Position numbers and translations under genes: made by a program. This document shows positions 17,400 through 37,582 of a stretch of 64,000 nt of DNA, piece by piece. The number at the start of each line of letters is the position of its first letter. The first letter of the stretch is position 1. Source of the stretch: Gracilaria domingensis (taxonomy: Eukaryota; Rhodophyta; Florideophyceae; Gracilariales; Gracilariaceae); the NCBI GenBank assembly GCA_022539475.1, contig VCMS01000289.1, positions 1 through 64,000 on the forward strand. Reading direction: 5' to 3'. The notes beneath the pieces were generated by a model. The model was not told the origin of the DNA, did no database searches, and saw only the letters and a list, made by a program, of their open reading frames with translations.

Positions 17400-17415
17400 G
17401 CTAGTTTAGGCCCTG
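17400..17415 (+). repeat. Left terminal inverted repeat of the 20-kb transposon
   Basis: GCTAGTTTAGGCCCTG, matching the complement of the right end (37,563-37,579). A closely related end, GCTAGTTCTTGGCC, starts at 48,300 and continues with strong similarity for over 100 bp (CTCAAAAAATTAA then AATTTTGGAAT). Confidence 0.85.
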
Positions 17416-17762
17416 AAATGGGCTCGCGAGGGGGTAGGCCGCGCTTGCACTCAAAAAATTAACAAATTTTGGAATGACATATTCCACTTTACGTAATTTT
17501 TTCTTCAGTTTCTCTAGTTCTTTAGTAGGTTCCGTTTGCCTTCAACCAGAACTGCATCCTTTTCCAGGAACCTCTGCGTTTATTTCATTCGCCCTAGTTT
17601 TCCTACCCGTTCCATTCAGGAACATAGTGCACATCCCAACAACCTTCCCCACCACACTCGTCCCATGCCACACACACTCAGCTCCAGCTACCCTCAAACC
17701 AACTGGAGCATACCTCAAAACACTTTACTCCTCACGCTTTTCATTCTGCGTATCGTCAAACG

Positions 17763-18561
17763 TCATCTCGTAAAAGTTCTGGGCGCAGCTCTGCCTATTC
17801 TCCTACACGCGCCTCGCTCCCATACGGCTCCCAACCTCCCTCCCTCCCGCACTCTTTTCTCGTCCTGCTCCTCCAGAGTCCTCTCCGCCAACAGCGTCCT
17901 TTCCTTTTTCTCAACCCTCGCCACACCTGCCCTCCTTTTCTTCAAACGGCTCCACCCGCCCTCTTCCTTACCACCATCAACATCCCTCTTGTTCCCGCTT
18001 TCACTCTTTGGCGTCAACGGCGAAGCTTGCCTACCACCTCCCGCCGCCCTCTTCAAGAACCCCTTCATGTCCATCACCTGTCGCACCAGCGCCCCAAGGA
18101 ATTTAAACCTCCCCTTCAACTTCCTATTCTTCTCCCAGACATCAGCAACCTCCTTCGCCAAACACTCTACCATCCACACCACCTTCAACTCTCTTCGCAC
18201 GGTAGATAGCACCTACAGCGATACTCCACCCTCAGAAACGCTCAGTGCAACACCTCTCATCTCCACCACCTTTTTTATTCCTCAGAAAGTCATCCACCTC
18301 CTCCTTCGCCCCAATCCCCATCAAGTTCATACGCTCCTTCATCTCCTCCGCAAACCCCTTCGGCGGAGGTGCTCCCTTCCCACCCCCATTCCCCATCTCC
18401 ATCCCAATCCGTATCTGGCTCAACTGCACCGCCCTACTCTCATCCCCCGCATCAGCATTCCCTAATTACTCCTCCGAAGGCGTCCTGCGTATCTCCTTGA
18501 CCACCTCCTTCCTCTCAAGCAGCGCTAAGAGCTCCTCGTCCTTCACATACCCATTCGACAT
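17763..18561 (-). pseudogene. Transposon accessory protein 'DEELLALL' type, interrupted
   Basis: The likely start is the ATG at 18,561 (MSNGYVKDEELLALLERKEV). Further segments in other frames are a Gly/Met-rich piece at 18,232-18,429 (LSQIRIGMEM) and a basic C-terminal part at 17,763-18,212 with likely coiled-coil helices and ASPLTPKSESGN followed by RLKKRR. The second copy at 48,868-49,631 has the same landmarks in the same order (MSDEYENDEELLALL, then SPVTPK and RLRKRR). Conservation in two family members, right beside the left terminus, indicates an element-encoded DNA- or partner-binding accessory protein. I know no named family. The frame is interrupted at least twice, or contains introns I cannot define. 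Confidence 0.55.
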
Positions 18562-19104
18562 TACGCAGTACACGAACGCGCGCGTTCTGAGACAAAATGC
18601 AAGAGCGCAAATTGTGCCACGAAAGAGAACGCGATTCCAACGCCCACGATCCGGACCCCCACACAGCCCACGCGCATGCCCTTTTCGTCGGAAATACTTC
18701 CATCTCGTTTTCGCGCCAACGCTCTCCCCCGTGGACACTCAATAGCCATCCAATGACCATCCATACGCCTCGAAACCCCTCAACGTGTACCACTTCGCTC
18801 AGTATGAAAACTGCACTACAGGTACTTTTCTCTCACGAGGGGGGAAAACTACACGACAGGTAACTTTCTCTCGTGAAGAAGGCCAAACTCTTTGACGGTC
18901 ACTGCTCGAACCATACGGTACTCGTCTATATGGCCACAGCTTCACACGACAACCAAAGGTAGAGCCCCAGAAGCCTCTCATATCCGCCAACACCTTTCCC
19001 TCTTCAAACTCCACTAGTTCAATCTTAAACAGACCTCTCTCTCAGTAACAACATTCAATAAAGAAAGAGTTTTACTAAAACGTATTATTTCTACCATACA
19101 ACCT
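18562..19104. other. Intergenic stretch inside the 20-kb transposon
   Basis: No conserved gene is recognisable; short ORFs on both strands are unsupported. It contains the upstream region of the DEELLALL gene. Confidence 0.4.
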
Positions 19105-19938
19105 TTACAAACTTACAAAGCGACGCCACTCTCTTCCATTCCCAGCATAAAGCGCTTCCCACACACTTCTTAACAGCGCTCTTTCTTGTAGCTCAACAAC
19201 CGAATACATTACAATTAGAACAAAAAAAACAGTTTTTCCCAGCAATGACGGTACCGCACGGCTGATACGTTTCCGTGAACCCTCCGATAATGAATCGCTC
19301 ACCAATTCCGCATTTAAAATGGGAACAAATCTCTGGAAGAACGGGTTCACGGCCTTTCCAATCCCGTTCATTAACAATGTTGACTTCAATGTGCTCCTTC
19401 CGCTCTGCACAACTATGTGAAACACATTGGTCACTGTTCGCCTCTCTTGCGGCAAATCCATAACATGATTTGAAACATTCCTTGTGCTCCACAGCACAAG
19501 CCATCTCTGCGGATAATAGTTACCCAGTCCCAATAGAAACCTTCCAGAAGAAAAGGCAACAGTGTTAATATTAATCGCATCTAACAGCGTTCTCCCTTCC
19601 TGAAAGAAATGAAAACTCTGAAAAATGCAAATATTCACAAAAAACAATCCACTCAGCTTAAACGCACCAAATGCGTTCAATATCACAGCCCAAATCCCAA
19701 GCTGACGTTCAGATTGAAAGTTCTCTGTCGCCACCGAACCAAACAACCCCTCGCGCACACATTGCAAACCATCTATAAACAACACATGCGGTAGCGACTC
19801 TATTACCGCTACCGTCACGACCCTCCAAGCATACGCGCTCACAGAACCGTCCTCCGACATAAGCACATGCACAAGTGCCGGTTTTATCATTCCATACAAC
19901 AGAAAAAGAGCAAGCATCCACAACACACAATACAGCAA
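19105..19938 (-). CDS. Multi-span membrane protein, unknown function, transposon cargo
   Basis: A clean 277-codon frame from the ATG at 19,938. Hydrophobic segments lie at about residues 1-26 (MLYCVLWMLALFLLYGMIKP), 38-56, 80-112 (LGIWAVILNAFGAFKLSGLF then FFVNICIFQSF) and 240-258 (GKTVFFVLIVMYSVVEL), so three to four membrane passes are likely. Between them is a polar loop of about 110 residues. No catalytic motif or family is recognised. It is one of only two long uninterrupted genes in the transposon (the other is the ParB-like gene), which suggests a recent loss of constraint or continuing use. It is unusual cargo for a DNA transposon; a vesicle, nuclear-envelope or self-protection role would be speculation. 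Confidence 0.55.
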   Translation of the reverse strand: MLYCVLWMLALFLLYGMIKPALVHVLMSEDGSVSAYAWRVVTVAVIESLPHVLFIDGLQCVREGLFGSVATENFQSERQLGIWAVILNAFGAFKLSGLFFVNICIFQSFHFFQEGRTLLDAININTVAFSSGRFLLGLGNYYPQRWLVLWSTRNVSNHVMDLPQERRTVTNVFHIVVQSGRSTLKSTLLMNGIGKAVNPFFQRFVPILNAELVSDSLSEGSRKRISRAVPSLLGKTVFFVLIVMYSVVELQERALLRSVWEALYAGNGREWRRFVSL

Positions 19939-20115
19939 TAACGAATCCCCACAAATCTGGCCGCCCAGTCGCCTCAGGCAACCATGCTACTCCCTTTCAT
20001 GTGCGAAACGAAGGCATCTTGTGAAGTGCACCTTACCAGACAAAACTCGATAGAAATCTGGACCCTCCAACAACATTTCTTCACTATCGATATGCTCTGA
20101 AATGAACTTGCACAA

Positions 20116-20391
20116 TTAACTCATCTCTCTTGCCAACGCCCAGTTTCGTACGTTCCTCTCCATTCCTCTCAACGGCCTTCTTCCTGTTACTCTTTCAAAC
20201 GTTAACAATAAATCTCTGTTGAATTTAAATTCAATTCTATCAGGGTACAATAGAAGCTGCACTTTACATGGCACCCCAACCCCTGCACCTGCACCAGGTA
20301 GCATGAACATGGATTCTTTCGCACTGTACATTGCACCATCCATTCTAATCTGACTTTTATGGCAGAGTCTGGTTTCTATTGATTCACCCAA
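20116..20391 (-). CDS. Hypothetical 91-residue protein
   Basis: An open frame from the ATG at 20,391 (MGESIETRLCHKSQIRMDGA) with a Gly/Ala/Pro-rich stretch (LPGAGAGVGVP) and a possible beta-rich C-half (CKVQLLLYPDRIEFKFNRDL). No family is recognised. It lies on the same strand as the membrane-protein gene and about 180 bp upstream of it, so the two could be neighbouring genes or pieces of one. Low confidence. Confidence 0.3.
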   Translation of the reverse strand: MGESIETRLCHKSQIRMDGAMYSAKESMFMLPGAGAGVGVPCKVQLLLYPDRIEFKFNRDLLLTFERVTGRRPLRGMERNVRNWALAREMS

Positions 20392-20821
20392 ACCAGAGAA
20401 ACAGAAAGTTTCTGTTTACCCCTATATGGATACATTTTGAAGCGGTATATCTCCGCACACCCATCGTTTCCAAACCCATGGCCGTTTTATGAATATGTTC
20501 CTCTTTTATATAAGACCTCAACACCTTTTTGGAGCACACAATACTACGAATTATAGCGGTCATCATGAGCTTGAACCTTGTTCCAACACTAGTTTTTCCA
20601 AAACAAACCGTAGGGAAATCCCAAAAGGAAATAATACATCATCCAACCGCTTACCTCTCGAATTTCACTACGCTCCTGCCATTTTCATATCTAGACTTCT
20701 GCCTACTCTCCCATCTTGTATGAAATACGTTCCTATGATTCATATCCTGTGAACCTTTACTCTTCGATACTTTAAGACAAGAACGACTGTTTCACGCACC
20801 CGTTCTAGTAAGTATTCATAA
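20392..20821. other. Intergenic, no gene seen
   Basis: Only short, mutually inconsistent ORFs on both strands. It separates the minus-strand left cluster from the plus-strand reductase-like gene. Confidence 0.4.
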
Positions 20822-21687
20822 ATGATGTTGCCATCAGAAAGGAACTGGAGACTTCTGTGTCTCAAACTCTATTTAGCTAGCCACCCAGTTCAACCAACAT
20901 TAAATTGCGCTGCCCTCCAAGAGCGAAAGAGAATCCTTTCAATGTCCACCGTCATGAGCTCCGTAGATAAGGAACCGATCCGAGCGACAGTACTACGTCC
21001 ATCAACTTCGGCCGTAGTCGTCGGGAAAGGACGAATAGGCACATTGCTTCCAGATTTCGTTCATTCAGGAGACATTCATGTGTCCACCCCAGGTTACATA
21101 AGCATGAAGCATCCACCTCTAGGTCCGATCTTTCTATGTGTCAGAACGTCTGCCCTACAAACTGTCATTGATTGTACTCCTCCAAAGCGGCGAGAAGATC
21201 CTGTGTTTATTCAGATTGGCCACATTCTCCGGCTTCTTTGTAGACATGGCGTACAGGAATGCACAAGGACCTGTCTTTATGTTGCCGTGCCACTAAGGGC
21301 GCCACATCGGAGAACAGCATAACCCTCTACAGCCCTCTAGGTCTCACAGTTGCGATAGAAAAGTGGGCTGACCCACTCGCGGAACGATTCTGGTCAGCAA
21401 ATCTCTTTTGTCCTATTGTATTGGGTGGAGAATTTACGAGGGCGTACTATGAAAAGCTTGTATGGATTTCGGCGTTCAACCTCGTCGAATCCTGTCATGG
21501 CTACATATCAATGCATGACGTAGGTACCGTGCATAAAGCAGTAGAGTGTACCATGATGAAGGAGCTCCTCTCCATTGTGACCGAGAAGACAAACATTGAA
21601 TTCAATACGGAGGAGGTGGTTCAACGGCTTTTGGCCTACGGCAAATTTCTTGTCAAATTCAATACGTCCATCTCCGAGATGAATTGA
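20822..21687 (+). pseudogene. Ketopantoate reductase-like (PanE/ApbA fold) gene captured in the transposon
   Basis: The first frame (20,822-21,322; an alternative start at 20,942 gives MSTVMSSVDK) shows a Rossmann nucleotide-binding loop, VVVGKGRIGTLL, then GPIFLCVRTSALQTVIDCTP and PPKRREDPVFIQIG. The second frame (21,259-21,687) holds the helical C-terminal domain with YEKLVWISAFNLVESCHG and a following helix with MMKELL, both typical of the ApbA/PanE C-terminal domain. A single frameshift near 21,290-21,310 separates them. Family members reduce 2-dehydropantoate with NADPH on the route to coenzyme A; this divergent subgroup may have another substrate. It has no introns, so it could be a retro-copied or directly captured host gene. 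No partner gene for pantothenate synthesis is nearby. Confidence 0.6.
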
Positions 21688-21996
21688 AGGAACGCCTTCT
21701 TCTCCCAATATTCTCAAGAGGCGAGAATTGCAGGAAAAGTCGACCCCGCACCATTTCAGACAACGCATATCAACGTCTTCCTTCACGACATTCTGCAACC
21801 TCTTTAATAAAATAGACATGAGCCAATAGAAACAACAAATCACCTTCTCCTTCACGCGTATGCGCTTTTAGAAGTTAGGTGCCGTGCGCCCCGTATAAAC
21901 CCAAATCCACAGCCGCCACAAGAAAAAGCACAAACATACTTTATATGAAAGCTTAGTTCAGAACAAAAGACGAGTAACCACAAGACAGTAGGTACT

Positions 21997-23563
21997 TTAA
22001 TCTTCCAAAACCCTTGGGCGTCCTACAGGTTCGAATTCTTCATTCTCATCTTCCTCTTCCTCCTCTACCTCCATCTCGGGGTCCTCTATCCCCATGTCTT
22101 CGTCGTTATCATTCCCACCACTCTCGTTTCCAGCTGTAATACTACTTTTCTCCCTGTTCTCCTCTACGAACTCCTCTCCTTCCCCAAACTCATTCTCCTC
22201 CTCAAATTCAGGATTGAATTCCCTCACACGATGAACGGCATCGGGTAGCTTGTATCCCTCTGGCATCATGTAATGTACATGTGATAACCCATGAATACGT
22301 CCATATCTCGAATAGTATACTTCGAAGCGGCTCCCGCATGTACCACATCTCTCCGCCGAATGAAGATCGAGAATGGGGTACCATCACCTTTTTCATTGTA
22401 TGTCGTGAATGCGAGGTTCGCTTAGTTGCGTCTAGAGTTGCAATTCTGTGACTACCTTCGCATATCCAAAGTGGAAATGGGTTCTCCCCAGACACCATGA
22501 GAAAATAGCCGGGGTTGTCAGTCTCCGACGTTTCCAACGTGACTAGTCCCTTGACGTCCGTGTGAAGTGTCTGGCGCGGACACGCCTTCGTTGTGGCGAG
22601 TAGTCGACCTCCATTCCTGGGCGCATACGTGCTCCTCGATGTCAGTGTCCTGTTGTTCCAGAGTTGCAATGCAGCAACGACCTGTCCCAGTCCAGCATCC
22701 AGGAGAGCTCTCTCCCGTACCGCCCACCTCAGCGCCCGGTCCATCTCAACCCTGTCGACAAGCCCGAGTCTGGTAATCATATATCGAGTCTGAGCAATCA
22801 GCCTATGTTTCTCATCCTCCGTCTATGGACCACTGTCGATGATAGGCATCCAATACATTCTGTTCCCTTCAACTCGGAGGTCTCCTTGAGCGAGAGATTC
22901 GTCTTCAAAATGCTTCAAAAACCTTCCACAAACATCACCAGAATCCTTTCTCGTCCAAACGCCCTCCATATCCGGGATGGTCGCATCTGTAGCAAATCCG
23001 TCTAGTATACAAAACCCTTTCTACCGCACTCCATTGCGTTTCTGCGTAAAAAACTCCAGCGCACACTCATCACGCTCCACTGCTGCCAACCATAAGGTAT
23101 CCTCATCACTTGTACCAGCGGGTCGATTGGTCGGCAACAGGAAACCAAGCACAGGTCTTTTTGTGATTCCCAGCTCTTCTTGTCTCGCCCTGGAGGCATG
23201 CCAATACACCGCGTGATGGACACTTCGTAAACCATCCTCAGGCAGTAGCTCAGACCGATGTCCTCAAGCCCTGTGATTCGCTCTCAGACATGGCTCCCTA
23301 TTGGCAATGTGATTCTGTCTCCCCCATCATCTTAGACAGACAACCGTCAAGTAACACCATGCTGGGTATTCACCTCCATCATACGGTTCTTCTTTCTCCA
23401 GTAAGCCTTCCTCTTCCGGAAGCTCTTCTGGATTCTCATCATCGAAACCCATGTGGGTTTCCGCTTCACTTTCCTCCATTTCTTCATCATCAACAAACGC
23501 GTCCTCGTCCTCCTCCATCACCATCAGCGTAACCTCTCTCTTGCTCATAACCTTTTCGTTCAT
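21997..23563 (-). pseudogene. 2-oxoglutarate/Fe(II) oxygenase-like protein with acidic tails, interrupted
   Basis: Read from the ATG at 23,563: an acidic N-terminal segment (MEEDEDAFVDDEEMEESEAE), a middle segment (RPVLGFLLPTNRPAGTSDED), then a core at 22,208-22,780 with QTLHTDVKG, PGYFLMVSGENPFPLW and ICEGSHR, and after a frame change near 22,350 the stretch DVVHAGAASK before an acidic tail (22,269-21,997, many Glu). HTD followed about 80 residues later by VHAGA matches the HxD...H iron site of double-stranded beta-helix dioxygenases. That superfamily includes the TET/JBP DNA-base oxidases found in some KDZ-type fungal transposons and phytanoyl-CoA-type enzymes; I cannot tell which. Several frame changes; probably not functional here. 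Confidence 0.45.
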
Positions 23564-23729
23564 TTACCTCATAAGGTCATCGACGCCCATCTTCTGAAAC
23601 AAGTCCACCAACTTGGATAGAAGAGATAATTTGCGATTTTTACGGGGGGTTGGGATGGCTCTCTCTCTTCGCCAGACTCTATCTCCTTCTCTATCTCTTC
23701 TAAAGAATCAACAGAACCTCCTTTAGCTT

Positions 23730-25133
23730 TCACCCGCTTCTGTAACTCACCTTTTCCTGGGCGGAGTTGGTGCTTGACTTAGCTGCCATTCTCTGACTCC
23801 TTCGCACACCCGGGGGTCCAGCACCTCCATCTAAATAAACCACGGAACCATCATCATCATCAGATTGCTCTTTTTTCTTCGTGGTTTTGCAAGATGGCGG
23901 CTGAGCACTTCCAAAACCAGGCTTCTTTTTAGAAGCTGTAGAAGATTGAATGCCGAAGAAAGAAAGAAGTATATTTCTTACAATATTGGTGCTTCGCTGG
24001 ATCGATTCTTCGCGAACAGCTCGACGGGGAAGGACCCTCAGAGTGACGGCGTGCCCGAGAACAAACTCCGAAACCAGATTCAGAGGACTACTCTCTCCAG
24101 AAGTTCTGAACGCTTCCTTGAAGTAGCCCTCAAGGATCAGCTTCTTTTCAGCACCGACCGTACGGGCAGCCCGATATATTGCAAGTGCCCTACTAAAAAC
24201 GAATGTGTGCACATCTTCGAATCTTCTCCAAGCATAGGTCTTGGGATCCTTCACCACAAGACGTCGTACGCATTCCACAGCAAACCAAAACTCCTGAGCT
24301 TCCAGTTTGTATAACTCTGTGTATGAGAAGTGAGTGATTGCTATCTTCGAATTGTGCTTGCACATGTGCTCAAACTTCTCTACCATGCCAGGAGTATTCA
24401 CGAGATTCAAAGCAAGGTCTGCATACCGCACGTACTGCTTCTTCTCAGCCCCCGATATCAGATTACTGCTTTGCAGACATTGTGCAACCTGTTGAGAGTC
24501 GAGTTCTGACGCAGATATTGAATGTTTACTTTCAAGAATCATACTGAGACTCACAGTAGAATGAAATTTGTCTGCAAAACTCATCTTCAACAAAGCTTCA
24601 CTCTCGTCATTGAGAACTGCGCCAAGACCCAACACCTCGCTCGCCATGACATGCTGCCCGTCCGTTCTTCTCCAAATCATGACTGTCACACTCTTAGTTA
24701 TAGTCTTCCATCGAGGGTCCTTGTCATGCTCTAGAATATGCAGCAACACCATCAAACGGTGGTGTCCATCCACTATAATGCAGTCCACAAGCACTCTTTC
24801 CTTATCATTCAACGCATTCTCCATCTCCATCTCACGAGCAACTGTCACAATCATCAGCCCAAGCGCACCAAGCAGTCCACACTTCCTAAAGTTCTCAATC
24901 AAGTCTCCCTTGTGACTTTCAATCATACCACGGAGTGTCTGCTCTGATTTCTTTATGTGGGTGATATAGATTGCTACTGCCCGCTGAGTGTAGTCAGTGA
25001 GGTCAATGGAGTTAGCATTGAGGTCCCAGATATTCTTCTTACGCTCCGTTCCCGTCCTCCTCTGTCTCTTCACCTCCACAACGTCTTCATCCGAGCTGCT
25101 CATGACATGAATGTTCTCCTTCACTTTGCCCAA
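23730..25133 (-). CDS. ParB/sulfiredoxin-like domain protein (intact)
   Basis: An uninterrupted 467-codon frame, the longest host- or cargo-type frame in the transposon. Residues 1-50 are polar with basic clusters (KRQRR, RKK). The core near residues 70-200 contains CIIVDGHHRLMVLLHIL (119-135), the DGxHR signature of ParB-type nuclease/CTPase and sulfiredoxin folds, which binds a nucleotide phosphate. A long helical region follows, and the tail (about 400-467) is low-complexity with basic (KKK, TTKKKEQ) and acidic (DDDD) runs. In bacteria and phages such domains bind partition sites or, beside methyltransferases, act in DNA modification. It is divergent from the rightward gene set across the twin hairpins at 25,980-26,393, which might be its site; that link is inference. 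Confidence 0.65.
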   Translation of the reverse strand: MGKVKENIHVMSSSDEDVVEVKRQRRTGTERKKNIWDLNANSIDLTDYTQRAVAIYITHIKKSEQTLRGMIESHKGDLIENFRKCGLLGALGLMIVTVAREMEMENALNDKERVLVDCIIVDGHHRLMVLLHILEHDKDPRWKTITKSVTVMIWRRTDGQHVMASEVLGLGAVLNDESEALLKMSFADKFHSTVSLSMILESKHSISASELDSQQVAQCLQSSNLISGAEKKQYVRYADLALNLVNTPGMVEKFEHMCKHNSKIAITHFSYTELYKLEAQEFWFAVECVRRLVVKDPKTYAWRRFEDVHTFVFSRALAIYRAARTVGAEKKLILEGYFKEAFRTSGESSPLNLVSEFVLGHAVTLRVLPRRAVREESIQRSTNIVRNILLSFFGIQSSTASKKKPGFGSAQPPSCKTTKKKEQSDDDDGSVVYLDGGAGPPGVRRSQRMAAKSSTNSAQEKVSYRSG

Positions 25134-25157
25134 TTCAGTAGTGGAATCGTGCTGGGG

Positions 25158-25731
25158 CTAAGGCTCCACTGGACCTGCAACAGATGTGCGCTGTGCCTCC
25201 GCTGTTGCTGGTTGTGAGTTCTCAAGCTGAAGGGCTCTGCAACGTCTGAGTATTTCTTTATCCCATGCGTACGTCCCGGCTCCAAGTATATCACCCAACG
25301 TCTCGGGGGTTCCCTCGACCCCTCCAAACGTATAGAGATAGAGTAGAGTTCCATAACCTGTGATATCAGTGAGACAAATCACCGCACAACCGGCTTCCAG
25401 CTCAGAATCGTGAAGGGATGTCTTCAAACGCCCATTATCATCAAACGTAGTCGCATGGTCAACAACCTATTTGGCCCCATTTTCTAGAACGATGAGAAGA
25501 TCCACCTCCAGACCAGGAATTATCTGTTCGCTAGACTGGGATACCTTTCTCGTGGTGGTCGTGTGGCGAGAACTGCGAAACGCGTTGACCATGGTATGTT
25601 ACAGATGCTGAGTAACGACGCTGAGGTGTGTGTTTCAATTGCTTCTGCGCACGACTTACAATGGACACCCTCGCTTTTGGCAGCTCCTTCCAATGCACTG
25701 TGCGAGCAAAGAATTCACCTGATAGTAACAT
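25158..25731 (-). pseudogene. Unknown protein upstream of the ParB-like gene, interrupted
   Basis: Two open stretches on the minus strand, 25,531-25,731 (MLLSGEFFARTVHWKELPKA) and 25,158-25,427 (SELEAGCAVICLTDITGYGT then LLYLYTFGGVEGTPETLGDI), seem to be parts of one protein of about 190 residues separated by a frame change and a short poorly conserved piece. No family is recognised. It ends just before and slightly overlaps the start of the ParB-like frame, so the two may have formed a transcription unit starting near the hairpin region. Confidence 0.35.
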
Positions 25732-25910
25732 CTCAGTTTCGCTAAAGGTCAGCGATATAACGAGAATACCAGTGACACGTAAAGAATCCGCTCACGAGAA
25801 CTTAGTTTGAATACAACTGTTAACACGAGTTCTTGTTCAAGTATTTGAACATGGCTTCATTTGTATTAAATACGTTCGTTCCTGTCCATTCGCGTGAAAT
25901 GCACTTTTGG

Positions 25911-26420
25911 GTACCCCTCGTACGGGGAACGGAACATGAAATAAGACGTTTTCGTTGAGGTTGAATTGTTGAATTTTCCCACCCGCTGTCCGAAAGTGCC
26001 CTGGCCGCCAAGGCAGGCACCCAGGCGATTTGGGAACCCCGCAAACTGCATCCGTTTAGGGGGGTGCCCAGCGCGCCTGGGCACCCGCCCCGGCGGTCAG
26101 GGCACTTTGGACCGCCGGTGGGCGGAATGAACGACTTTTTGAACGCAAGGTATGCGTGATGGCAATATGTCTGCAACGTGTCCCATTACGTCTGGAGGCG
26201 GCGTTTGCTCCCCTCTTACGGGGAACGGAACATGAAATAAGATCTTTGACTGCGCCTACCCGCGGTCCGAAAGTGCTCTGGCCGCCAGGGCGGGCACCCA
26301 GGCGAGTTGGGCACCCCCTAAACGGGTGCAGTTTGCGGGGTGTTCAACTCGCCTGGGCGCCCGCCCTGGCGGCCAGGGCACTTTCGGACCGCGAATGAGC
26401 GCAATGAACGGTTGAGTACA
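25911..26420. repeat. Tandem pair of long hairpins with mutually inverted loops
   Basis: Two similar units about 280-296 bp apart, each preceded by TACGGGGAACGGAACATGAA (25,921 and 26,217). Hairpin 1: arms 25,980-26,040 and 26,059-26,122 with several mismatches, loop GCAAACTGCATCCGTTTAG. Hairpin 2: arms 26,261-26,317 and 26,337-26,393, 57 bp each and nearly perfect, loop CTAAACGGGTGCAGTTTGC. Loop 2 is the reverse complement of loop 1 apart from one base, although the arms are in the same orientation, so the centre was inverted in one copy. The region lies between divergent transcription units. Confidence 0.85.
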
Positions 26421-27867: not shown

Positions 27868-27930
27868 CCGGATCTCATTTCCACTCGTTCAAGTTTAAAC
27901 ACCACGGATAGAACTGTTGAGCCTCCGAAA

Positions 27931-29703
27931 GTGGCCAAAGACCGCTTTGTACCGAATGCAATGAAGGAGCTCAACAACTTGATGGAGAGCACTTATTCCG
28001 TTTTGTATAATTGTCATCAAAAGGACCTAGTTCTAACCCACGAGTCTTTGGGAATGAAAAGTAGCCTCACATGGTCAGCTCGTTTTCACAGACCGGCCGT
28101 ACAACATACGTCGCCTTAAGGGAAAGACCAGCAACCATGACCTACTCACTGAAGAAGACATGGAGCGAGCGGCGGCCACAATCAATGACGTTCTGCGCCC
28201 CGGGGGGCACTTCATAATATTCTGTGCAGTTGAGCAGTTCTCGAAGTGGTTCGAAATCATGAATGACACTTTGAAGAAGAGGGAAGTGTCCGTTGTTCGA
28301 AAGGGAATGCGTGTAACTGAGGAAAGATTCAAACCTATATTCCGTGTGGATAAGACTCCAATGGTGTTTATACAGGAACTTGGGAATCTTATTCAGAACC
28401 CCACTCGTATTTCCTCACTGATGTCGGTCACCGATTATTCCATATACGGTGTGAAAAGAGGTGTGAATTCGGAGGAGGAAAGAAGCATGGTCTCATTACA
28501 GAGTTTCAACTACGTCCCGTCTGCACTCGAACCGTACAAGAATGTCTTGGACAACTTTCCGAAGAGATCTAAGGCAGATCTGTTGACCTGGAGAGTGAAG
28601 ACAAAGAATGGTTGGAAGACGCAGAGCATCGGGCCGGAACAAAAGTCTAGAGAGCATATGAAGAAACTCATATCCCGCTTTACAAAGCCCAGGGACAGAG
28701 TGGTTGACCCCTTCGCGGGAACATGAACCACTGGAATGACGAGTTTGTCACTATCGAAGCACAGGAAGTTCATACGGAGCGAGTTGGACGGTGCTTGCTT
28801 CGAGCATGCTAAGCCTCACATGACCCTACAAATGTCCCGTGTCATCAATGACGGAAATACAGATATTAACGTGGATCAGAGCACGCTTTATGCAGCAGCA
28901 CGCGTGGTAGAAGCGTATCCGTTGAACACAAGGTTGAGCAAAGCATGGAGAGCCCCTGGGAAGTTTCCTCCGTATCAACGTCTTCCACTGCATATAATCG
29001 TGTTCCTACAAAACCTGTGGTTTGATCAAAGTTTTCGTGACGTGGTTATCAAGAAAGCTGTTAGTGACTGGCCCAAAACCTTTCGTGGGGCTCTTGATTG
29101 TGTTCATACAGGGTCTTTTTTGGCCCACGATGCTACTCATTGCTGTGTGGTTATATCTAAGTCCACCATGAAACACCCCAAAGCCGGCTTGGGGGTGTTT
29201 GCAGCAGTGCCTATAAAAGAAGGGGAAACCATTTGTCCGTTATATGGCACTTTAGTGTATCAGAATCTGGCCAACCGTATTCAAGCACCTACAACGTACG
29301 GAAAAGGAATACTTGGCGTCACACCGGATCGATTCCGAAGATATTGTATCGAAACGGAATTGGAAGCGGATTTCTTTCCCATTCTCACTGGAAACGGAGG
29401 AGGAAGTAAGAAAAAGCCTGTAGTATGGGTGGTTCCAGCACCATTTTGTGTCGCACGTTACATCAATGACGCCAGGTACAATGAAGGGGATCTCTAGTTA
29501 GATGCCCCCCCACCTGTTAAAGGTCGTCTCGTTAATAATGCTTTTGTTACGAAGTCAAGGGGAAGAACAACGTCATTTAAGTCTTTGGAGGCTCCTGAAC
29601 TTCTCTTTGTTGTCGCAAAGCAACACATTGAGGTAGGAGAGAAAATATTTATGGACTACGGAAATCCGTATGACTGGGGGACATCTCTTTCACACAATTC
29701 GTA
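27931..29703 (+). pseudogene. DNA amino-methyltransferase fused to a SET domain, interrupted
   Basis: The N-terminal part (27,931-28,119) leads to a motif IV-like TDRPYN near 28,090, followed by DVLRPGGHFIIFC (28,188-28,226). At 28,703-28,726 comes DPFAGT, the AdoMet-binding motif I, then TTGMTSLSLSKHRKFIRSEL. Motif IV before motif I is the beta-class order of N6-adenine/N4-cytosine DNA methyltransferases, with DRPY in place of (D/N/S)PP(Y/F). In the same frame a SET domain follows: GLGVFAAVPIKEGETICPLY (about 29,186-29,245), CVARYINDARYNEGD (about 29,450-29,492) and VGEKIFMDYGNP (about 29,634-29,669), the NHS-like and Tyr-containing motifs of lysine methyltransferases. One frame change near 28,080 and two in-frame stops interrupt the gene. 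A DNA and a histone methyltransferase in one polypeptide is very unusual. Confidence 0.62.
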
Positions 29704-29751
29704 GTCTTCATAGTCTCTTCAAGTACTACATGGCATTGTAAATGAATCTAT

Positions 29752-30740
29752 TTATCTTTTGTACCTTATATGAACAGCTCGTAGGAAGGGTGAAGTTCGG
29801 AATAGTTTCATTTTGGCCATAAGTCGTTCACGTGGAAACATGCCATGAAATTCGTCCAAAGTAAGAGTTGCTAAACCGATGCATGGTGGGTTCTCTTCCG
29901 TATCTCCCAGAAAGCTCCACGCACTAACGCCTGCCCGAAACCAAGACATTTTCTACTTGCCAGGGGACAAGAAGATATGGTTGCCGGGAAAGGTAAAAGG
30001 CCTTCTTCTTCTCCTCGTGGAAGTGCAGTGAACCGCCTAAAAACTTCTGGGACAGAGCTCATATCGAAACGAACACAGAGAGGTCGACAATCTCGGCAAG
30101 GAAGCTCTGCGAAAAGAGCCACAAAAGGGACACATCGTAATTGGACAGCACCTCGCGCGGGACTACCACGAAAGGAGACAACGAGGCCTCTGACAACGGA
30201 AAAGAGTGCGGGCAAGCCCGACAATCGGGAGGTCACAGACCTCGGACAACCGACAAGTACTGTGGAGGTAGATAGAGAATTTCTGGGTCATTCGACGATC
30301 CTTTAGGAGAGATACAACCGTCCTCTGCGAGGGCATAATTCTCCGAAAGGAATCGTACCAGGATAGTATACAAAGTCAAGGGAGAAGCAAAAGAACCCCT
30401 GTTGCCGAAGGTGGTAGTAGAAGCGATAGGGAGAGACCCGGGAGAAGAAGGAAGCTGACGCAAACTGAACCGGTGCGCAATCGTTCACCACCCTGAGTCT
30501 GTCGTGCCCTTGAAGAACAACATATCCGATGGACAGCAAGCCCAGTAGCGACAGTTCGACAGCGTGTTCCCCTCTTTCAAGGTATGCATGGAGAGAGGGA
30601 AGAAGACGTTATCGGCGAAATTGAGATTGAAAGGGGAATGGCAGTAGACTCCGGATGGAGAGGGAACGAAATGGATAGAAGAGCAGGGCGGAACTGATCG
30701 AGCTTGTGAATACGCTGAAGACACCTCTACAGAAAAGTGA
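29752..30740 (+). other. Weak coding region with a Ser/Arg-rich ORF (29,977-30,306)
   Basis: The 109-codon frame (MVAGKGKRPSSSPRGSAVNR...) is strongly basic and low-complexity, like a disordered nucleic-acid-binding protein; the following 400 bp show only short open pieces in changing frames. The opposite strand has similar short ORFs. I cannot confirm a gene. Confidence 0.25.
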
Positions 30741-30750
30741 ATCCGCGACA

Positions 30751-31226
30751 ATGATGGCTGGAATATCTATTAAGTATGCAGAGGAGCAAAAGAAAGAACT
30801 CGAACGAAAGCTTCGAGACAGGGACCTAATAATTCAGAGCCTCGTGGTGTGATAAAAGTGAGGATGGAGAAGGTCACTGGTGTGAAAGAGCCACGGAAAA
30901 GTGGTCAAAAGAAGTTGACCATCTCTGTTCGAGATGAATTTAAGGGAGTTGCCTGGGGGGTTTACCACAATATGACGCAGTATGCGAAGAGGGAGACATG
31001 TAGGTTCGTTTTCGAAGAGAAAATTACTGAAAGAAAGTGGAGGAATCCATCTGAATATCTCTACACTGATGCTTCGGAAGAGATCATAACGGAACGTAAT
31101 AGTGGAAGAGGCCTGGTGCCCAAATCGCCCGTCGAGCTGGAGGATGGTCTTGGAGTGTACACACCATCATTTGCAGAAGGTATAGATAGGCTACTGAAGC
31201 ATCTTGTCCATTTAGAATTGAAGTAA
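30751..31226 (+). pseudogene. Small coiled-coil-start protein, interrupted
   Basis: A short frame beginning near 30,752 (MMAGISIKYAEEQKKELERK) is a good candidate for a coiled coil and ends after about 34 residues. It is followed at 30,849-31,226 by a 125-codon frame (KKLTISVRDEFKGVAWGVYH, RETCRFVFEEKITERKWRNP) with a mixed alpha/beta look. They may be parts of one gene. No family is recognised. Same strand as the methyltransferase-SET gene upstream. Confidence 0.3.
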
Positions 31227-31447
31227 GTGATGTGGGACGGTATAAGACTTTGTGGGTTGGAAGAGGTGTGTCTAACGGAGGTTTGCGCGGACCTGTGTCT
31301 GAAACAGAGAATGTGTCAGACAATGAGTGATGTAGTAGGAGCGAGAAATAGAAATGCGAGGGAACGCTATTCTTTTTGCTCGGGTGCGATCTTATCTGGA
31401 GAACGGTGAAGAATACGACAGAGAACACCGAGAAGCTGAATAAATAA

Positions 31448-32011
31448 GTGGAAGAGGCGCAAACAAAACTGTGCAAGAAGGACTCAAATGGTTCTACGGA
31501 CACTTCTTGGTGGCGTAAGGCACCGTTAAGTGAGTTGATGTACTCTGAACATAGTGCATCTTCACAGGACCTCGCAGATGATGAACACGTTGAGTTGTTT
31601 GGGACGTCCGTTGCATTAGAAGTTCTACAGGAATTTAGAGGTTATGACGTCAAAGACGACGACGGCACACAAGTGGATGGTACAATAATTCTGTTGGCAC
31701 GTCTAGATGCATTGGTATACTCGGTGGTGAAGCTGTTGGGAACAGGATTGGGGCGAGGCGGTCAACGTCAGAGAGAGTTTAGTAAGGTTTTTCGAGATTT
31801 ATTACCTGCCTGTATGGAGCAACTACTCCATATCGCCTACAATATTGTCGAAGAAAGACACAGCGTCGAACTCACAAACTATGGCCGAGAACATGATGAA
31901 TGGAGTGGGGTGGGGGGCAATGGTGTGCGAGAGGTCACAGTGGAAATAAGAATGCCTTCCAGAGGAAAGTTCGTTCTGGTGTTGAAGGATACGTTTTTAA
32001 TGACAATATGA
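31448..32011 (+). CDS. Hypothetical 187-residue protein, transposon cargo
   Basis: A clean open frame (MEEAQTKLCKKDSNGSTDTS) with an Asp/Glu-rich first third, a helical segment (IILLARLDALVYSVVKLLGT) and a C-terminal beta-like end (REVTVEIRMPSRGKFVLVLK). The ATG may not be the true start, because the frame is open a little upstream in this decayed stretch. No family is recognised. It is the last rightward gene before the convergent transposase gene. Confidence 0.4.
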   Translation: MEEAQTKLCKKDSNGSTDTSWWRKAPLSELMYSEHSASSQDLADDEHVELFGTSVALEVLQEFRGYDVKDDDGTQVDGTIILLARLDALVYSVVKLLGTGLGRGGQRQREFSKVFRDLLPACMEQLLHIAYNIVEERHSVELTNYGREHDEWSGVGGNGVREVTVEIRMPSRGKFVLVLKDTFLMTI

Positions 32012-32191
32012 GCCGTCGCCTTGGTTCTATTCATGACTGCTTCATCGCTGAATATGAAGAACAAGACATGAAGTGTCACAAGATTACATGCAAAATGAAC
32101 GCTAGTACTGAACTTGTGGAGCAAGATGAACGTAAGTAACAGGGTATATCGTGTAGTTAGGTACTTGTTACGAAAAATTATGTTTTTAAGG

Positions 32192-32494
32192 CTACTTCTT
32201 TGTTGGGTCGTTGTAGAAACGATTAACGTAGAAACGGTGCTCATACCAGTGCGATGGACCTCGAAAGGGTCTGGCTGGATAATTAGAACGAACGGCAAGA
32301 AAGGTACCCAGAATAGCCGGTAGCATTGTCCATCCATACCATGGGGTGATGTTTTGCATGCTTCTCGATCTGGAGATAGTTGCAATTGCCGGTGAAGTAC
32401 GGTCGAATTCGTCATCCGGAGCCCATCGTAAGGACACGTACCCAAGTACTCTTTCTATGTTTTTAACTGGTGAAACCACCTCAAAGTATCGCAT
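32192..32494 (-). pseudogene. Possible protein fragment between cargo and transposase
   Basis: A 100-codon frame (MRYFEVVSPVKNIERVLGYV ... SRSMQNITPWYGWTMLPAIL) with one hydrophobic stretch (WTMLPAILGTFLAV) and an aromatic C-terminus. No family is recognised. It could be the 3' end of a larger lost gene or the tail of the transposase gene region. Confidence 0.25.
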
Positions 32495-32576
32495 GAAAGC
32501 AAATTCTTTTGATATATGAAGGTGCGTCTTTGAAGATGTTCTAACAAGCGATACTGTCTGAGCAAACCATACTGAC

Positions 32577-35385
32577 TCAGTACCTGATGCGTTTTAATCG
32601 TTCCCCTTTATCACAATGGGTGAGAACTTGGGAGTTCGCGAGAGCCCGAATGCTGGGCACGCAAAAACCCGCTGCTCCATTCTCAAATTCTGCTTTGTCA
32701 AGGTGAAGTTGTTTGTTACTTCTTCGTAGTATTCGAGAGTTCGAGGTACGGCTCCAAGTATAAAAGCGGACTTCACAAAGGATAGGGTGATATCTTTCAT
32801 GACGTATTCTCCACGTTTTTCTGAGAGCGGTTCTTCTGTAAGATTCAAGAACGGTGTGATTCCTGTCTCTCCGATTTGAGATAGTACGGTTTCTGTTTCT
32901 GAGCTGAACCGTTTTGCAATGAAGTTGGATAGAACGAAGTCGAACGTGTTTGACCCTGATGATAATATTGATTCGCACTCAGTGATATCCTCGAGCTCGA
33001 TATTGATCCCATCTCTAGACCTTCTGGGAAATGTCTTTGGTGGCATGATTCGAGATGAAATGTTCTGGCTTGCGTGGAATCCTTCTCTCCACTGCGTCTT
33101 TCGTTCTCGATGTTCAATCGATTGAATTGTCTCTGCGACCGCTTAGGTGGTTCGACGAGAAGTATTCTGATAGTTTCTTTTGAAAAGCAAATGAGCGTGT
33201 ATATATACTCCAGCATCATAGTACTTGACACTACCAAGACGACGTATGTCATCCACAATATGGTCTAATAGATGAATTTTGAGTGTTCTAAGCCCAGATG
33301 GATGGAACGCTTCCAGACATTTTGAAGCATGCTGCTTGAAAGACGTAATGTTATTTTGCGATGTATCAAGAGCGAGAAAAGTCCATTCTTGTGGCATATT
33401 GTAACGAAAGATAGAAGCCATGAGATCTGAATACTTGGTGAACACGGTTGTAATGGGTTCTTCTTCAGCTTCCCCGCAACATGTGTCGAAAAAGGACCCG
33501 ATAGAACGGAAGACCATATCGAAAGCTTTGTAGCCCTTTGCTTCAAGCATACCTCTTAGACAATCTTTAGCGAATATACCGTTTAGCGTCTTTCCCTTCT
33601 CTTTTGTTGAAAAATCGACAGTACACCGCGGTGCAGGGGCGTCACTATGGATAGCTGCAAGTATAGAGTTGGAATGGTCGAGGACAAGGGTGCGAATGTC
33701 TAAAACGTTCGAGGGGAACCTGATACAGCAGTGGTAAATAGCGACTCTGACAGTAGTCGCTCCATGGCCGCTGTTTTCAAAAGCTGGTAAACGCCGAGAT
33801 GAAAGTTTTGAAGGGGTTCAAAAGAGAGCAGACTGTACGGGATAAGACTTAGTATCCAATTGAGATTGGGATACACTTCTAGAAAAGAATTAACATGCGA
33901 AAGCACTGTGACTGCAATATAACTTGAGCCTGGAGCTTTCTTTCTCTCGATTGCCGCCGACGGCGGTTTTGGGCATCCTGTTTGGACTTGGTAAGAAGAG
34001 ATGAATATGCTGCTCGAACATCCTTGGTGTGGGTGAAGCTGCGGTCTGCTGCTTCACTGAGGATTGGCTTTTGTAGTTTTTCTCTTGGTATCAAGCAATG
34101 ATGGCATGGAGGCTTAGTGAGGGTGCCATGTGAGACAGAGAGTATATAGTTGGCCTCTGGGATATCAGCGCAATAAGTTACAATAATAGAATGGCAGACA
34201 CGTCTTGTTTCATCGGCCGATGTGAACGGTATTCCACACTTCCAGAGCTGGAGTAGAGGCTTCAGAATAAGCTGCGGAGACTAGTGTAGAATTGAATTCT
34301 TGCTTCTCGAAGGGAAACTAAAGGCACAGAAGGCATGTTATCAAACGACGATTCGCTTTGTATCTCCTCTAGTTCCTTAGGTATGTAGGCAACAATAGTC
34401 TAGTCCTCGGAGATGCACTTCTGACGTAGTGTATCTGAGAGGTTGAGTAGGGTTAATTGAAGCGGATAGGAGGTAACGGAAGATTGCTTCAGAGAGGTAG
34501 AAGATTTATCAGTGTAAAGCTATAGTAGACCAACAAATGACTCAATTCCGCTATCTTCGATTCCATACCACACGTGCTCAACATCAAAGGAAGCCATGAT
34601 ATGAGAGCTAAGATGGCGGTACACGTCTCTTGCGAGGCGGGCGGTCATGGAGTGTGAAAGGGTGCCATGCGGGAAGAGCCCGACATGCGGTTTCTGGAAT
34701 AAAGTGTTCTCGGAGTTAGCTAGTCTGAGTTGTTGCAACAAAACGTTCAATGGTTCTTGGAGTAGAGTTTGGCTCGAAACTTACCGTCACAGGTGGTAAC
34801 GAAGCGCTCCCCAAACCCGTCTGCAATGGCGTATCGTTGAAATATGGAGTCCTTCAGCTCCGTACAACGCTTGAAGGAAGTAATTGTTTCATTGAACATC
34901 TCTTGGGAGAAACGAGGATTACGAAGAAGAGATATGAGCTCGTCCGCAGCCCTATGACCTAGGTTCGATGCAACGGAGGTAAAAACGACCACGGGATAGT
35001 CCATGTGTAGCTCTTGCAACGAGCTTACGGCTGGAGGCGGAGAGGGGAAAGATGCCAAACGTCATTGTGATAGTGAGCCAGAAAGCTCGGAATCCGTGGG
35101 AAGAATGGGTATGTTGGGAGCGGTTTCGGGATGGGCCTCGATAGCGGTGGACGGGATGAAAAGAGGCGCATCGTCGGTACGAGAGTCTGAAGGAGACGGT
35201 GATGATGGAGGCAGGGGTATATGGGTGGCTTTCTGACGCTTGGAGCGTCGTACTTCTGGTTCGGGTGAGGGGGCTTGCCGTCTCTGTGAAAGTCGTCGTT
35301 GGGAGCAGTTGGCGATGTGCTGACGCAGAGACAGAATTCCCCTTGCCCTGTAAGGGCACCCTGGGGCGCGGCATCGGTAAGTCAT
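32577..35385 (-). pseudogene. Plavaka/KDZ-like (CACTA-group) transposase, interrupted
   Basis: The start is the ATG at 35,385: MTYRCRAPGCPYRARGILSL, then QHIANC, a C2HC zinc-finger pattern, followed by RRSKRQK and a Pro/Ser linker. Next come LHMDYPVVVFTSVASNLGHR (34,747-35,058), ANSENTLF and WYGIEDSGIESFVGLL (34,520-34,750) and, near 33,143-33,550, HLLDHIVDDIRRLGSVKYYD with FKRNYQNTSRR, a C-terminal signature of Plavaka-type transposases. The homologue at 58,307-60,200 is open for much longer and aligns throughout. Such enzymes are DDE transposases that cut at the terminal repeats. The gene is broken in at least five places. It starts 2.2 kb from the right terminus and points inward. Confidence 0.7.
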
Positions 35386-35549
35386 GGCCTGGCTCGCTTG
35401 AAAGAAAAGAGGAAAAGGAAGGAAGCAGCGCGTGAATGAGAGAGGAGGAGTTTGTTGCAGAGTTGGTGAAGAGAAAGTGAAGGGTGAGAAACGAAGAGAC
35501 GGTTGCGGGGAATTATTGCGTTCGCCAGTGCGGGGTGCATGGAGCATAC

Positions 35550-36264
35550 GGTGGAAAGGTAACCACGATGCTGTGCGTTCAAACTAAAAAACAGGACAGT
35601 TCGAAAGGTTTAAAATTTTTATTCAACAGGTGTACAGATATTAGAGGACGACGGGAGATCTACAGGGCTGTCTATTTGAGCGATTGACCTGCGTCACTGT
35701 CTCGTCGCCGTTCTGGTGTTCCTCCGCACTAGGGTTCGTTTTCTGATCGTGCGCAGAGGTTCTTCATGCGGGATGCTTTTGCGAATGCGTGGCGAGGTCG
35801 AAGTGAGGCTGGGTGGGATGTACATGATAAGTGCTGCGACCTGTTCGAGCGTCGTGGTGACTTGGTTCGTGATGACTAACGTTGGTTTTGTCTCTCTGAT
35901 CGTGCAGAGAGTTTAGGTATTTGGTTTGTTAGAGTTTTGGGTAATTGGAGAGAGGTGAGTGAAGAACTTTTGTTGTTTTCTATAACGAGGGGGTTACTAA
36001 CTGCAGGGATTTCTGCTTTCTTTTGTACAGGTTTGGGGGAATTGTTTTGGGAGAAATGTGTTGTCCCATCAGATGTTCTTCAATCTAGTTACTCACTAAC
36101 AACCTGAGTTTCTGGTTTTTCTTTTGCTATACATTTCAGCAGATTTGGGCTGTGAGCATAGTACGTGCCCTGCGACACGTTTTCTCGCTCAACGAGGTAG
36201 TCATTCTACTTAGCAGTATGACTACTTTGTTCAGTGCGAAAATGTGGCACATGATGCGTATACT
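35550..36264. other. Subterminal non-coding region, no gene seen
   Basis: Between the transposase start and the right-end repeats; likely to hold the transposase promoter, but I see no clear TATA box or motif. Confidence 0.4.
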
Positions 36265-36272
36265 ATTCTTCT

Positions 36273-36750
36273 GCTTCGTTTTTCTGTGAGCGGCGAGATG
36301 CGTACCAACTAAGTTTCTTTTCTTTCGATTTGGTTTCGGTTCATACGGATCTAGAGGGGTGTGTAAGAAGAGCGTGTGTGATGCTGATGATTTGTCGCGC
36401 GCTGCGTGAGACCTGGGAATGCTGACTGGTGTTCATGTTGTTGTCACCATTGCGTACAGAATCTAGATGGTGGACTGGTGCGGTTGTACTGGCAAGTGTG
36501 GTATCCTTCCGCTTCGTTTTTCTGTTGGCGGCGAGATGCGTACTAACTAAGTTTTTTTCCCTTTGCATTGGTTCGGTTGATAAGGATCTGGAGTGGTGCG
36601 GGGGAAGAGGGTGCGTGAAGCTGATGTTTTGTTGCGCGCTGCCTGAGGTATGAGATTGCTGACTAGCGTTTATGGTGTTGTCACTATTGCGTACAGAAGC
36701 CTAGATGGTGGCTTGGCGTGGTTGTACGGGTATGTACGGGTAAGTGCTAA
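36273..36750. repeat. Subterminal tandem repeat, two ~238-bp units
   Basis: GCTTCGTTTTTCTGT followed by GGCGAGATGCGTAC starts at 36,273 and again at 36,511. Both units continue alike through the CTAACTAAG-type block, a GGATCT block, TGTTGTCAC and GCGTACAGAA, with moderate divergence. Subterminal repeats of this kind are common in CACTA-group transposons as transposase-binding regions. Confidence 0.7.
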
Positions 36751-36884
36751 CTGTTTCTGAGGTTTTGGCTGATGACAAGTATCTGACAAAGGTTTTTCTC
36801 TCTGTTCTGTTATGGTTCTGTGTTGATCTTTGATGTGAAGTGTGTTGCCTTAGTTTGCATGGTGGGGGTTGCGAGTTATGCGGG

Positions 36885-36995
36885 TCGCGACAAGCTGTGC
36901 CATCCGGTGTACTATTTCAGAATACTCTGGAAGGCACGGGTTGTCGCCACTCCTACCAGTAGCGACAAGCCGTGCAGTCCAGAATACTTTGTATA
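36885..36995. repeat. Subterminal inverted repeats around GCGACAA-GCCGTGC
   Basis: GCGACAAGCTGTGCCATCC (36,888), the complement of GCGACAACCCGTGCC (about 36,936-36,950) and GCGACAAGCCGTGCAGTCC (36,962) form alternating inverted copies, each beside an AGAATACT motif. They can form alternative hairpins. Confidence 0.6.
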
Positions 36996-37260
36996 AGCGT
37001 ATACCGTTGCACGTAGCCTGCGGGTGCTGGGAAGGGTATGAGATGCTACGAGTGCGATGTGCAAGCGTAAATTGGGATAGAAATAGAATATAGAATAGGC
37101 ACATGTGAACCATTAGTGAAGAGCACGATTGACCGCAGGAGAGGGCGTAAACCAGCGAGAATGGAAAAGCGCACGAGTCTGAACTACAGGCTATGGTAGT
37201 AGAAACTAGGGGCTAAAATAGCAAGAAAGGAAAACGAGGGAGTTAAAACTGCATGTCTAA

Positions 37261-37450
37261 ATTAGCAGAGATGTAATACTGGCCAGGATAGCATCTGCAC
37301 GTGAACTAGCAAAGACGTAATAGACAGTAGTTCACCATGCGCGCGCCAACCAGCACAGATGTAAAAGAGCGTAGTTTATCATGCACGCGCCAACTATCAC
37401 AGATGTAATACAGCATAGTTTATCGTCCGCGCGCCAACTAGCACATTCGT
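37261..37450. repeat. Subterminal 44-bp tandem repeat (four to five units)
   Basis: AACTAGCA-type starts at 37,304, 37,348, 37,392 and 37,436, an exact 44-bp spacing, with an earlier diverged unit at 37,261. Each unit has the pattern ACTAGCACAGATGTAATA, then AGTTTATCATGC and GCGCGCCA. Located within 350 bp of the right terminus. Confidence 0.75.
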
Positions 37451-37516
37451 AATAGCTGCAAGTAAAAGAGGAACAGGAGCAGCATCTAGCTGTTTTGTAA
37501 TAGTAGATACAAGGAA

Positions 37517-37579
37517 TTTTTCAAAAAATTAACTAGCGGACCAGGTGCAAAGTCTAGCGGAACAGGCCCCTAAACTAGC
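37517..37579 (-). repeat. Right terminus with 21-bp repeats and terminal inverted repeat
   Basis: Read inward from the end, CGCTAG recurs every 21 bp (three units) before TTAATTTTTTGAAAAATT. The terminus at 56,227 has the same build: units of 21 bp carrying TCCAG and then TAAATTTTTTGAAAAA. The outermost bases are the inverted repeat of 17,400-17,415, and GTT follows at 37,580. Confidence 0.8.
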
Positions 37580-37582
37580 GTT

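What the first reader, a model, noticed from the sequence alone, without database searches (positions are those of the whole stretch)
17400..37579. A complete 20.2-kb DNA transposon nested in a Gypsy element, with exact limits
Seen: inverted termini GCTAGTTTAGGCCCTG / GCTAGTTTAGGGGCCTG (complement), GTT on both outer sides, and on both flanks minus-strand gag of one Gypsy element, whose LTRs (10,862-11,164 and 38,414-39,588) I could match across the gap. Known: CACTA-group elements make 3-bp duplications and can capture genes. Inference: this is a single large transposon of about 20 kb carrying at least eight genes besides its transposase, a size and gene content beyond ordinary Plavaka/CACTA elements.
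Basis: partly seen in the sequence, partly recalled or inferred. Interest (0 to 1): 0.92.

Follow-up and report, generated by a model that had tools for sequence, protein, structure and literature searches.

The report
Giant self-marking transposon in red seaweed
A 20-kilobase jumping gene in a red seaweed, now a decayed copy, belongs to a group that carries enzymes predicted to chemically mark DNA and histones, and a close relative of it has left hundreds of fresh ends in the same genome.

Summary
The host is the red alga Gracilaria domingensis. Seven other left ends and six other right ends continue past the proposed termini. Two other complete copies have TA/TA. Removing the element plus one TG gives a continuous gag reading.

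It is Plavaka-type (PF18759). The window copy is dead: its transposase, ParB-like and methyltransferase genes carry stops. Relatives hold longer open versions: a Plavaka transposase, a ParB-fold protein, and an N6/N4 DNA methyltransferase fused to a SET domain.

A sister family, nested inside the C6 copy with an exact empty site, has 576 left and 570 right ends in the genome; 64 related methyltransferase-SET loci were scored. In both families long palindromes lie between the divergent ParB-like and methyltransferase-SET genes. Giant red-algal elements of this kind are in print; this gene arrangement I did not find there.

The parts
17351..37597 (+). Complete but decayed giant Plavaka-type DNA transposon, 20,247 bp
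   Evidence: ends fixed by comparison with other genome copies; about 91% identical to C20 and C6 copies over the aligned length
17349..17350 (.). Target site duplication TG, left copy
37598..37599 (.). Target site duplication TG, right copy
17351..17367 (+). Left terminal inverted repeat CGTCGGTGTTCTCGGAA
37581..37597 (-). Right terminal inverted repeat CGTCGGTGTTTCCGGAA
17400..17415 (+).
37563..37579 (-).
37292..37467 (+). Four tandem 44-bp subterminal repeats at the right end (64-70% alike), possible transposase binding sites (inference)
17853..18699 (-). Accessory gene 1, coiled-coil-like (by eye), frame-shifted; 38% match in sister family
18940..19824 (-). ORF of doubtful standing; 71% identical to the C20 ORF, no sister-family match
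20903..21945 (+). Accessory gene 2 (VVGKGRIG protein, function unknown), frame-shifted; 49% match in sister family
22087..25598 (-). Accessory gene 3, ParB-fold protein with a C-terminal HTD..H region that looks like a 2-oxoglutarate dioxygenase (by eye only); 8 stops over the matched pieces plus frameshifts here, 1,186 codons open in C20
25984..26408 (.). Long GC-rich palindromes between the two divergent genes
26664..29701 (+). Accessory gene 4, N6/N4 DNA methyltransferase fused to SET domain; start placed by eye; 10 stops in the matched part here
30843..31720 (+). Accessory gene 5, unknown (52% match to the 832-aa ORF of the sister family), frame-shifted
32462..35609 (-). Plavaka transposase, broken into six matched pieces with 7 stops; 1,048 codons open in C20
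10862..17350 (-). Host Gypsy element, left part (LTR at 10,862-11,161; RNase H and integrase zinc-binding domain; weak reverse transcriptase and protease; 3' part of gag)
37600..39585 (-). Host Gypsy element, right part (gag zinc-knuckle part and the other LTR, interrupted)

Best explanation
17,351-37,597 is an old, inactive copy of a giant cut-and-paste transposon of the Plavaka type in Gracilaria domingensis. Shown: paired ends, 2-bp target duplications, and continuous gag when the element is removed. Also shown: relatives encode a Plavaka transposase, a ParB-fold protein, and an N6/N4 DNA methyltransferase-SET fusion, and palindromes sit between the last two genes in both families. Inferred: the transposase cuts at the CGTC..GACG ends, using subterminal repeats, and joins at 2-bp staggered sites. 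The ParB-like protein recognises the element's own DNA (possibly loading at the palindromes), and the methyltransferase-SET protein methylates that DNA and nearby histones. Such self-marking would keep the element expressed, or tell it when to move. Internally shortened copies would move in trans.
Confidence: 0.62

Rival explanations
1. Same transposon, but the accessory genes are passenger cargo with no role in the element's own marking: captured genes kept by chance or for a host-related function.
For: Sister copies of 9.1-10.9 kb have matching duplications in 12 of 12 pairs, so mobility does not need all cargo in cis; the C20 copy and the nested C6 sister copy lack the methyltransferase-SET block.
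Against: The same five accessory genes recur in both families at 37-52% protein identity in the better copy, and a methyltransferase-SET relative occurs in Chondrus at 33%; 30 of 64 sister-class loci have no stop in the matched stretch (counted by hand).
Confidence: 0.25
2. The palindromes are unrelated hairpin insertions (for example MITE-like units) that happen to lie in the gap; the ParB-like protein has another role, such as helping transposase or DNA repair.
For: Palindrome sequence is unrelated between the two families (no match of the window arm in C171); arm number varies: 4 in the window, 5 in C20, 6 in C6, 2 in C292.
Against: The position between the same two divergent genes is the same in both families, and few other long palindromes were found in them.
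Confidence: 0.35
3. One reading: limits 17,400-37,579 with a GTT duplication, a CACTA-type element.
For: The inverted repeats and GTT are literally present.
Against: Thirteen other ends (two of them identical) continue past these limits; the gag zinc-knuckle reading is continuous with the outer limits.
Confidence: 0.02
4. A composite of neighbouring smaller elements or an assembly join rather than one mobile unit.
For: Sister-family pairs of about 22.8 kb show no matching flanks, 0 of 4, so long units in this assembly may be misjoined.
Against: The window copy has matching TG, continuous gag across the site, and two colinear complete copies elsewhere with their own matching TA.
Confidence: 0.03

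Closest known systems
Plavaka DNA transposons of fungi (PlavakaA / PlavakaB; Kojima 2025, PMC12730594)
   Same: Plavaka transposase (PF18759), C(2)C and H(3)H motifs readable in the C20 transposase, 2-bp target duplication, epigenetic-type cargo carried by some families
   Different: Ends are CGTC..GACG instead of TGT..ACA or CATCA..TGATG; cargo is a DNA methyltransferase-SET fusion and a ParB-fold protein, no TET/JBP Pfam match in the proteins scanned; host is a red alga
Giant EnSpm/Plavaka elements of red algae (Petroll et al. 2025, Bostrychia moritziana; not held here, known from citing passages in PMC12477816; the word Plavaka for them is recalled)
   Same: Giant size, several accessory genes, red-algal host
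   Different: Cannot be judged gene by gene: the paper could not be read
[quoted passage not shown]
   Same: Same two prokaryote-like domains carried by a giant algal transposon, same proposed idea of binding and marking its own DNA
   Different: There one 1,104-aa protein; here two divergent genes, the methyltransferase fused to SET, the ParB-like gene with another C-terminal region, palindromes between them
Plavaka giant repeats of Amoebidium (PMC11244446, passages)
   Different: Many of the genes described there encode tyrosine recombinases

Membership tests
Plavaka | Transposase matching Pfam PF18759 | tested here: met
   window fragment 6.8e-08; C20 ORF 7.8e-22, sister 9.5e-18
Plavaka | C(2)C and H(3-4)H motifs between second D and last E (Kojima 2025) | tested here: met
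   CHRC and HLLDH read by eye in P0002; the catalytic acidic residues themselves were not mapped
Plavaka | Target duplication of 2 bp (A) or 2-3 bp (B) | tested here: met
Plavaka | Termini TGT..ACA (A) or CATCA..TGATG (B) | tested here: not met
   CGTCGGTG..CACCGACG; so it is Plavaka by transposase but neither described fungal subtype by ends
CACTA/EnSpm in the narrow sense | CACTA-like termini and 3-bp duplication (recalled) | tested here: not met
ParB/Srx superfamily | ParB N-terminal fold | tested here: met
   (low-confidence model outside that domain); sequence support weak, best PHROG ParB-like hit 0.0023 with the sister protein piece
ParB partition proteins | CTP-dependent loading at a specific palindromic site (recalled) | not testable with these tools
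   palindromes present, binding not tested
N6/N4 amino-methyltransferases of DNA | PF01555 domain with DPPY-type and FxGT motifs | tested here: met
   the base methylated (A or C) is not shown
SET-domain methyltransferases | PF00856 above cut-off | tested here: met
   8e-06 in P0003, 1.5e-07 in C171, 9.3e-06 in Chondrus; in the window copy only 0.017, below the cut-off
SET-domain methyltransferases | Catalytic NHxxxPN-type motif (recalled) | tested here: inconclusive
   the column reads IND..Y in six relatives
2-oxoglutarate dioxygenases (including TET/JBP) | HxD..H iron site in a double-stranded beta helix | tested here: inconclusive
   HTD..H seen by eye; no Pfam or useful PDB sequence match; model too poor to use

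The most novel reading that the evidence does not exclude
A eukaryotic transposon family that carries a ParB-palindrome system for recognising its own DNA: the ParB-like protein loads at the palindromes between the two divergent genes, spreads along the element, and brings a dual DNA- and histone-methylating enzyme that marks the whole element so that it escapes host silencing or times its transposition.
Probability: 0.18. Interest if true: 0.88.

Novelty: new variant of a known kind. Interest (0 to 1): 0.6.

Why it matters
The window copy is a fossil, but it fixes the exact ends and duplication of a red-algal Plavaka group. It also leads to a sister family with 576 left and 570 right ends and many open methyltransferase-SET genes in one 78-Mb genome. 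That makes a general question testable in a single organism: do giant transposons mark their own DNA and chromatin? Native long-read sequencing would show 6mA or 4mC directly, and the palindromes between the ParB-like and methyltransferase-SET genes give a concrete binding site to test. The pairing of a bacterial-type DNA methyltransferase with a SET domain on one protein links DNA and histone marking in one mobile element.

Tried and rejected
CACTA label: ends and duplication differ. Fungal host (my own first thought from the Plavaka literature): rejected when two proteins matched G. domingensis records whose contig lengths equal C20 and C6. Purifying selection between copies: windowed dN/dS (only windows with a best frame under 0.6 printed) gave similarly low values in unrelated frames, so it is not used as support. 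Dioxygenase domain: no Pfam, NCBIfam or useful PDB match and a model of mean pLDDT 31; kept only as an observation by eye. PDB sequence search for the ParB part gave one hit, a beta-lactamase at E 1.3. The C-terminal piece of the ParB-like protein matched none (50 stretches matched a pattern). Empty Gypsy site elsewhere: the right flank has no other DNA match; the left flank was not searched. Homologue searches are word-based and capped: the methyltransferase-SET search found 4 proteins among 3,615 candidates, the ParB-like searches 3 among 7,996 scored. Searching the ParB-like protein in the genome did not complete. Expression, methylation and population data were not available. Literature: 10 searches; a methyltransferase-SET transposon was not found in print by these, but the library is open-licence only and the key Bostrychia paper was not readable.
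Full report
Host. The window is contig C289 of a 77.9-Mb, 680-contig genome. The ParB-like protein of the C20 copy matches 'hypothetical protein FGB62_20g211' and a second record, FGB62_6g410, of Gracilaria domingensis, on contigs of 373,691 and 542,291 bases, the lengths of C20 and C6. A paper passage gives 78 Mb for this species (PMC10388701, passages). So the host is a red alga, not a fungus.

Limits. Aligned outwards, the eight left ends fetched keep CGTCGGTGTTCTCGGAAGTGG...AATAGTT, or close variants, outside 17,400, and seven right ends keep GTTCCGGGAACACCGACG, or close variants, outside 37,579 (an eighth right end, L014 on C8, did not match the anchor used there but has the end sequence with 2 mismatches). 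Flanks differ only beyond those points, except in C131 and C292, whose flanks are identical to each other. The element is therefore 17,351-37,597. Flanks read ..ACG TG | CGTCGG ... CCGACG | TG TGTT in the window, TA/TA in C20 (14,849 bp) and TA/TA in C6 (41,820 bp including a nested element). With the element and one TG taken out, the minus-strand gag reads on through a zinc-knuckle region, CPYCQHSGHYATRCELNPHHNTRCGSCGKVGQ; further upstream that gag frame has stops, so the Gypsy copy is decayed too.

Copies. C20 and C6 are about 91% identical to the window copy. C20 lacks window 26,815-32,387, the methyltransferase-SET block; C6 is interrupted at window-equivalent 32,632. With C292 as outgroup (8,697 four-way sites, left part of the element only) the window copy alone has changed at 4.9% of sites, C6 at 1.6%, C20 at 1.3%, and C6 and C20 share a further 1.4%. 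So the window copy is on the longest branch of the three. The three-way count (7.1%, 1.9%, 1.5%) has no outgroup and mixes two branches for the window copy. The LTRs of the surrounding Gypsy differ by about 13% over 256 columns, so the Gypsy insertion is of the same order of age or older (inference).

Accessory gene count. Five accessory genes of the window family have a sister-family match: coiled-coil-like gene 38%, VVGKGRIG gene 49%, ParB-like gene 37% in the nested copy and 32% in C171, methyltransferase-SET 44%, unknown gene 52%; the transposase is at 52-55%. One more ORF (18,940-19,824) matches only C20 of the sequences compared. The sister element has two HAD-type hydrolase genes (7.1e-13 and 3.6e-05) with no match at E 0.01 in the window, C20, C6, C292 or C171 sequences held.

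Sister family. The element nested in C6 (458,664-480,015, 21,352 bp) begins CGTCTGTGTT and has GA/GA flanks; the window copy preserves the matching empty site GAACTTGGGAGTTCG. Its left 30-mer occurs at 576 places and its right 25-mer at 570 (up to 3 mismatches; the reversed control gave 0). The 40 scored 200-base end matches of each end (of 644 and 611 candidates) are 99-100% identical. Searches list only the first 100 places each, all exact matches. I transcribed 96 of each, leaving out the last four of each list (left: C66 and C67; right: one on C65 and those on C67-C69). Of the 96 left ends, 51 have a same-orientation right end within 45 kb, with clusters near 10.3 and 22.8 kb; with the wrong orientation 10 do. 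The 45 unpaired may have partners with mismatches that were not listed. Two-base flanks match in 13 of 20 pairs, against 36 of 380 cross-pairs: 12 of 12 pairs of 9.1-10.9 kb and one of 15.4 kb match; 0 of 2 of 11.2 kb, 0 of 1 of 14.3 kb and 0 of 4 of about 22.8 kb match. I take the misses as misassembly or recombination across long near-identical repeats; this is not shown.

Methyltransferase-SET copies. A protein search gave 72 matches from 70 scored candidates of 717, so the number is a lower bound. Eight rows are window-family (seven at 67-100% identity and one at 59%, some being parts of one copy); 64 are of the 42-47% class. By my count 30 of those 64 show no stop in the matched stretch. 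Of 21 such loci on contigs whose right ends were at least partly listed, 13 lie 5.8-8.0 kb upstream of a same-strand sister right end and none at that distance from an opposite one. The protein collection of 5.8 billion gave four relatives: P0004 (55%), Chondrus crispus P0005 (33%), P0006 and P0007, all four with both domains in the precomputed Pfam column. DPP and the SET columns IND and E..Y are invariant in six sequences.

Palindromes. The four longest inverted pairs of the window element lie at 25,984-26,408, between the ParB-like gene (minus) and the methyltransferase-SET gene (plus). Related arms are found in C20 (5), C6 (6) and C292 (2); none in C170, C246 and C236, whose matched parts do not reach that far, and none in C171. 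C171, a sister-family copy, has other palindromes in the same gap (L042:875-1190). Folded as single strands, four pieces score z from -6.5 to -15.2 against shuffles, 0 of 200 shuffles as good in each. Two families, one of them seen in one copy, are a small sample.

Literature. Read: PMC12730594 (first of seven parts, section 3.2.2, passages): Plavaka A and B ends and duplications. PMC12477816 (passages; [quoted passage not shown] PMC11244446 (passages), PMC10388701 (passages), PMC12633428 (passages). Petroll et al. 2025: not held, its subject recalled. So giant red-algal elements with such enzymes are a known kind. What I did not find in print in ten searches is the methyltransferase-SET fusion and the ParB-palindrome-methyltransferase arrangement; the Petroll paper may contain them.

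Verdict. The element is real and its limits are now exact, but it is a dead copy of a known kind of giant transposon, in a variant with a notable cargo arrangement. The interest lies mainly in the sister family and the testable self-marking idea.

Noticed in passing
window 48250-62000: Rearranged sister-family debris: a left end with CGTATGTGTTCTGCAAAG at 48,250-49,907 (82% to the nested sister), a right-end piece at 56,210-56,502 (98%), and a Plavaka transposase match at 58,307-60,429 in a frame open from 58,184.
   Followed up: partly
window 56830-57589: Tandem duplication of about 415 bp (93% and 90% identical parts) that matches the sister element next to its transposase gene.
   Followed up: no
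window 61514-61902: Inverted and tandem repeats of about 113-120 bp that match C171 at about 16.2-16.7 kb, the sister palindrome gap.
   Followed up: partly
window 38670-39542: About 870 bp of extra sequence inside the right Gypsy LTR, with no counterpart in the left LTR.
   Followed up: no
G000 contig ends: Many sister-family ends lie 8-11 kb from a contig start with the element running towards it (for example C1, C2, C40, C46, C51, C60, C414, C330, C239), as if contigs break inside the long element.
   Followed up: no
L024:3326-4282 and L024:4341-5408: Two HAD-IIB hydrolase genes in the sister element, with no match in the window-family sequences held or in C171.
   Followed up: partly
L041 (C171:6001-12807): A third, more distant Plavaka-type element with its own right end (..AACACAGACG) at C171:12,807, inside the ParB-like gene of a sister copy; transposase 5.8e-23.
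   Followed up: no
C131 and C292: The left ends on C131 and C292, with their flanks, are identical over the stretch shown, suggesting a duplicated or haplotype contig.
   Followed up: no
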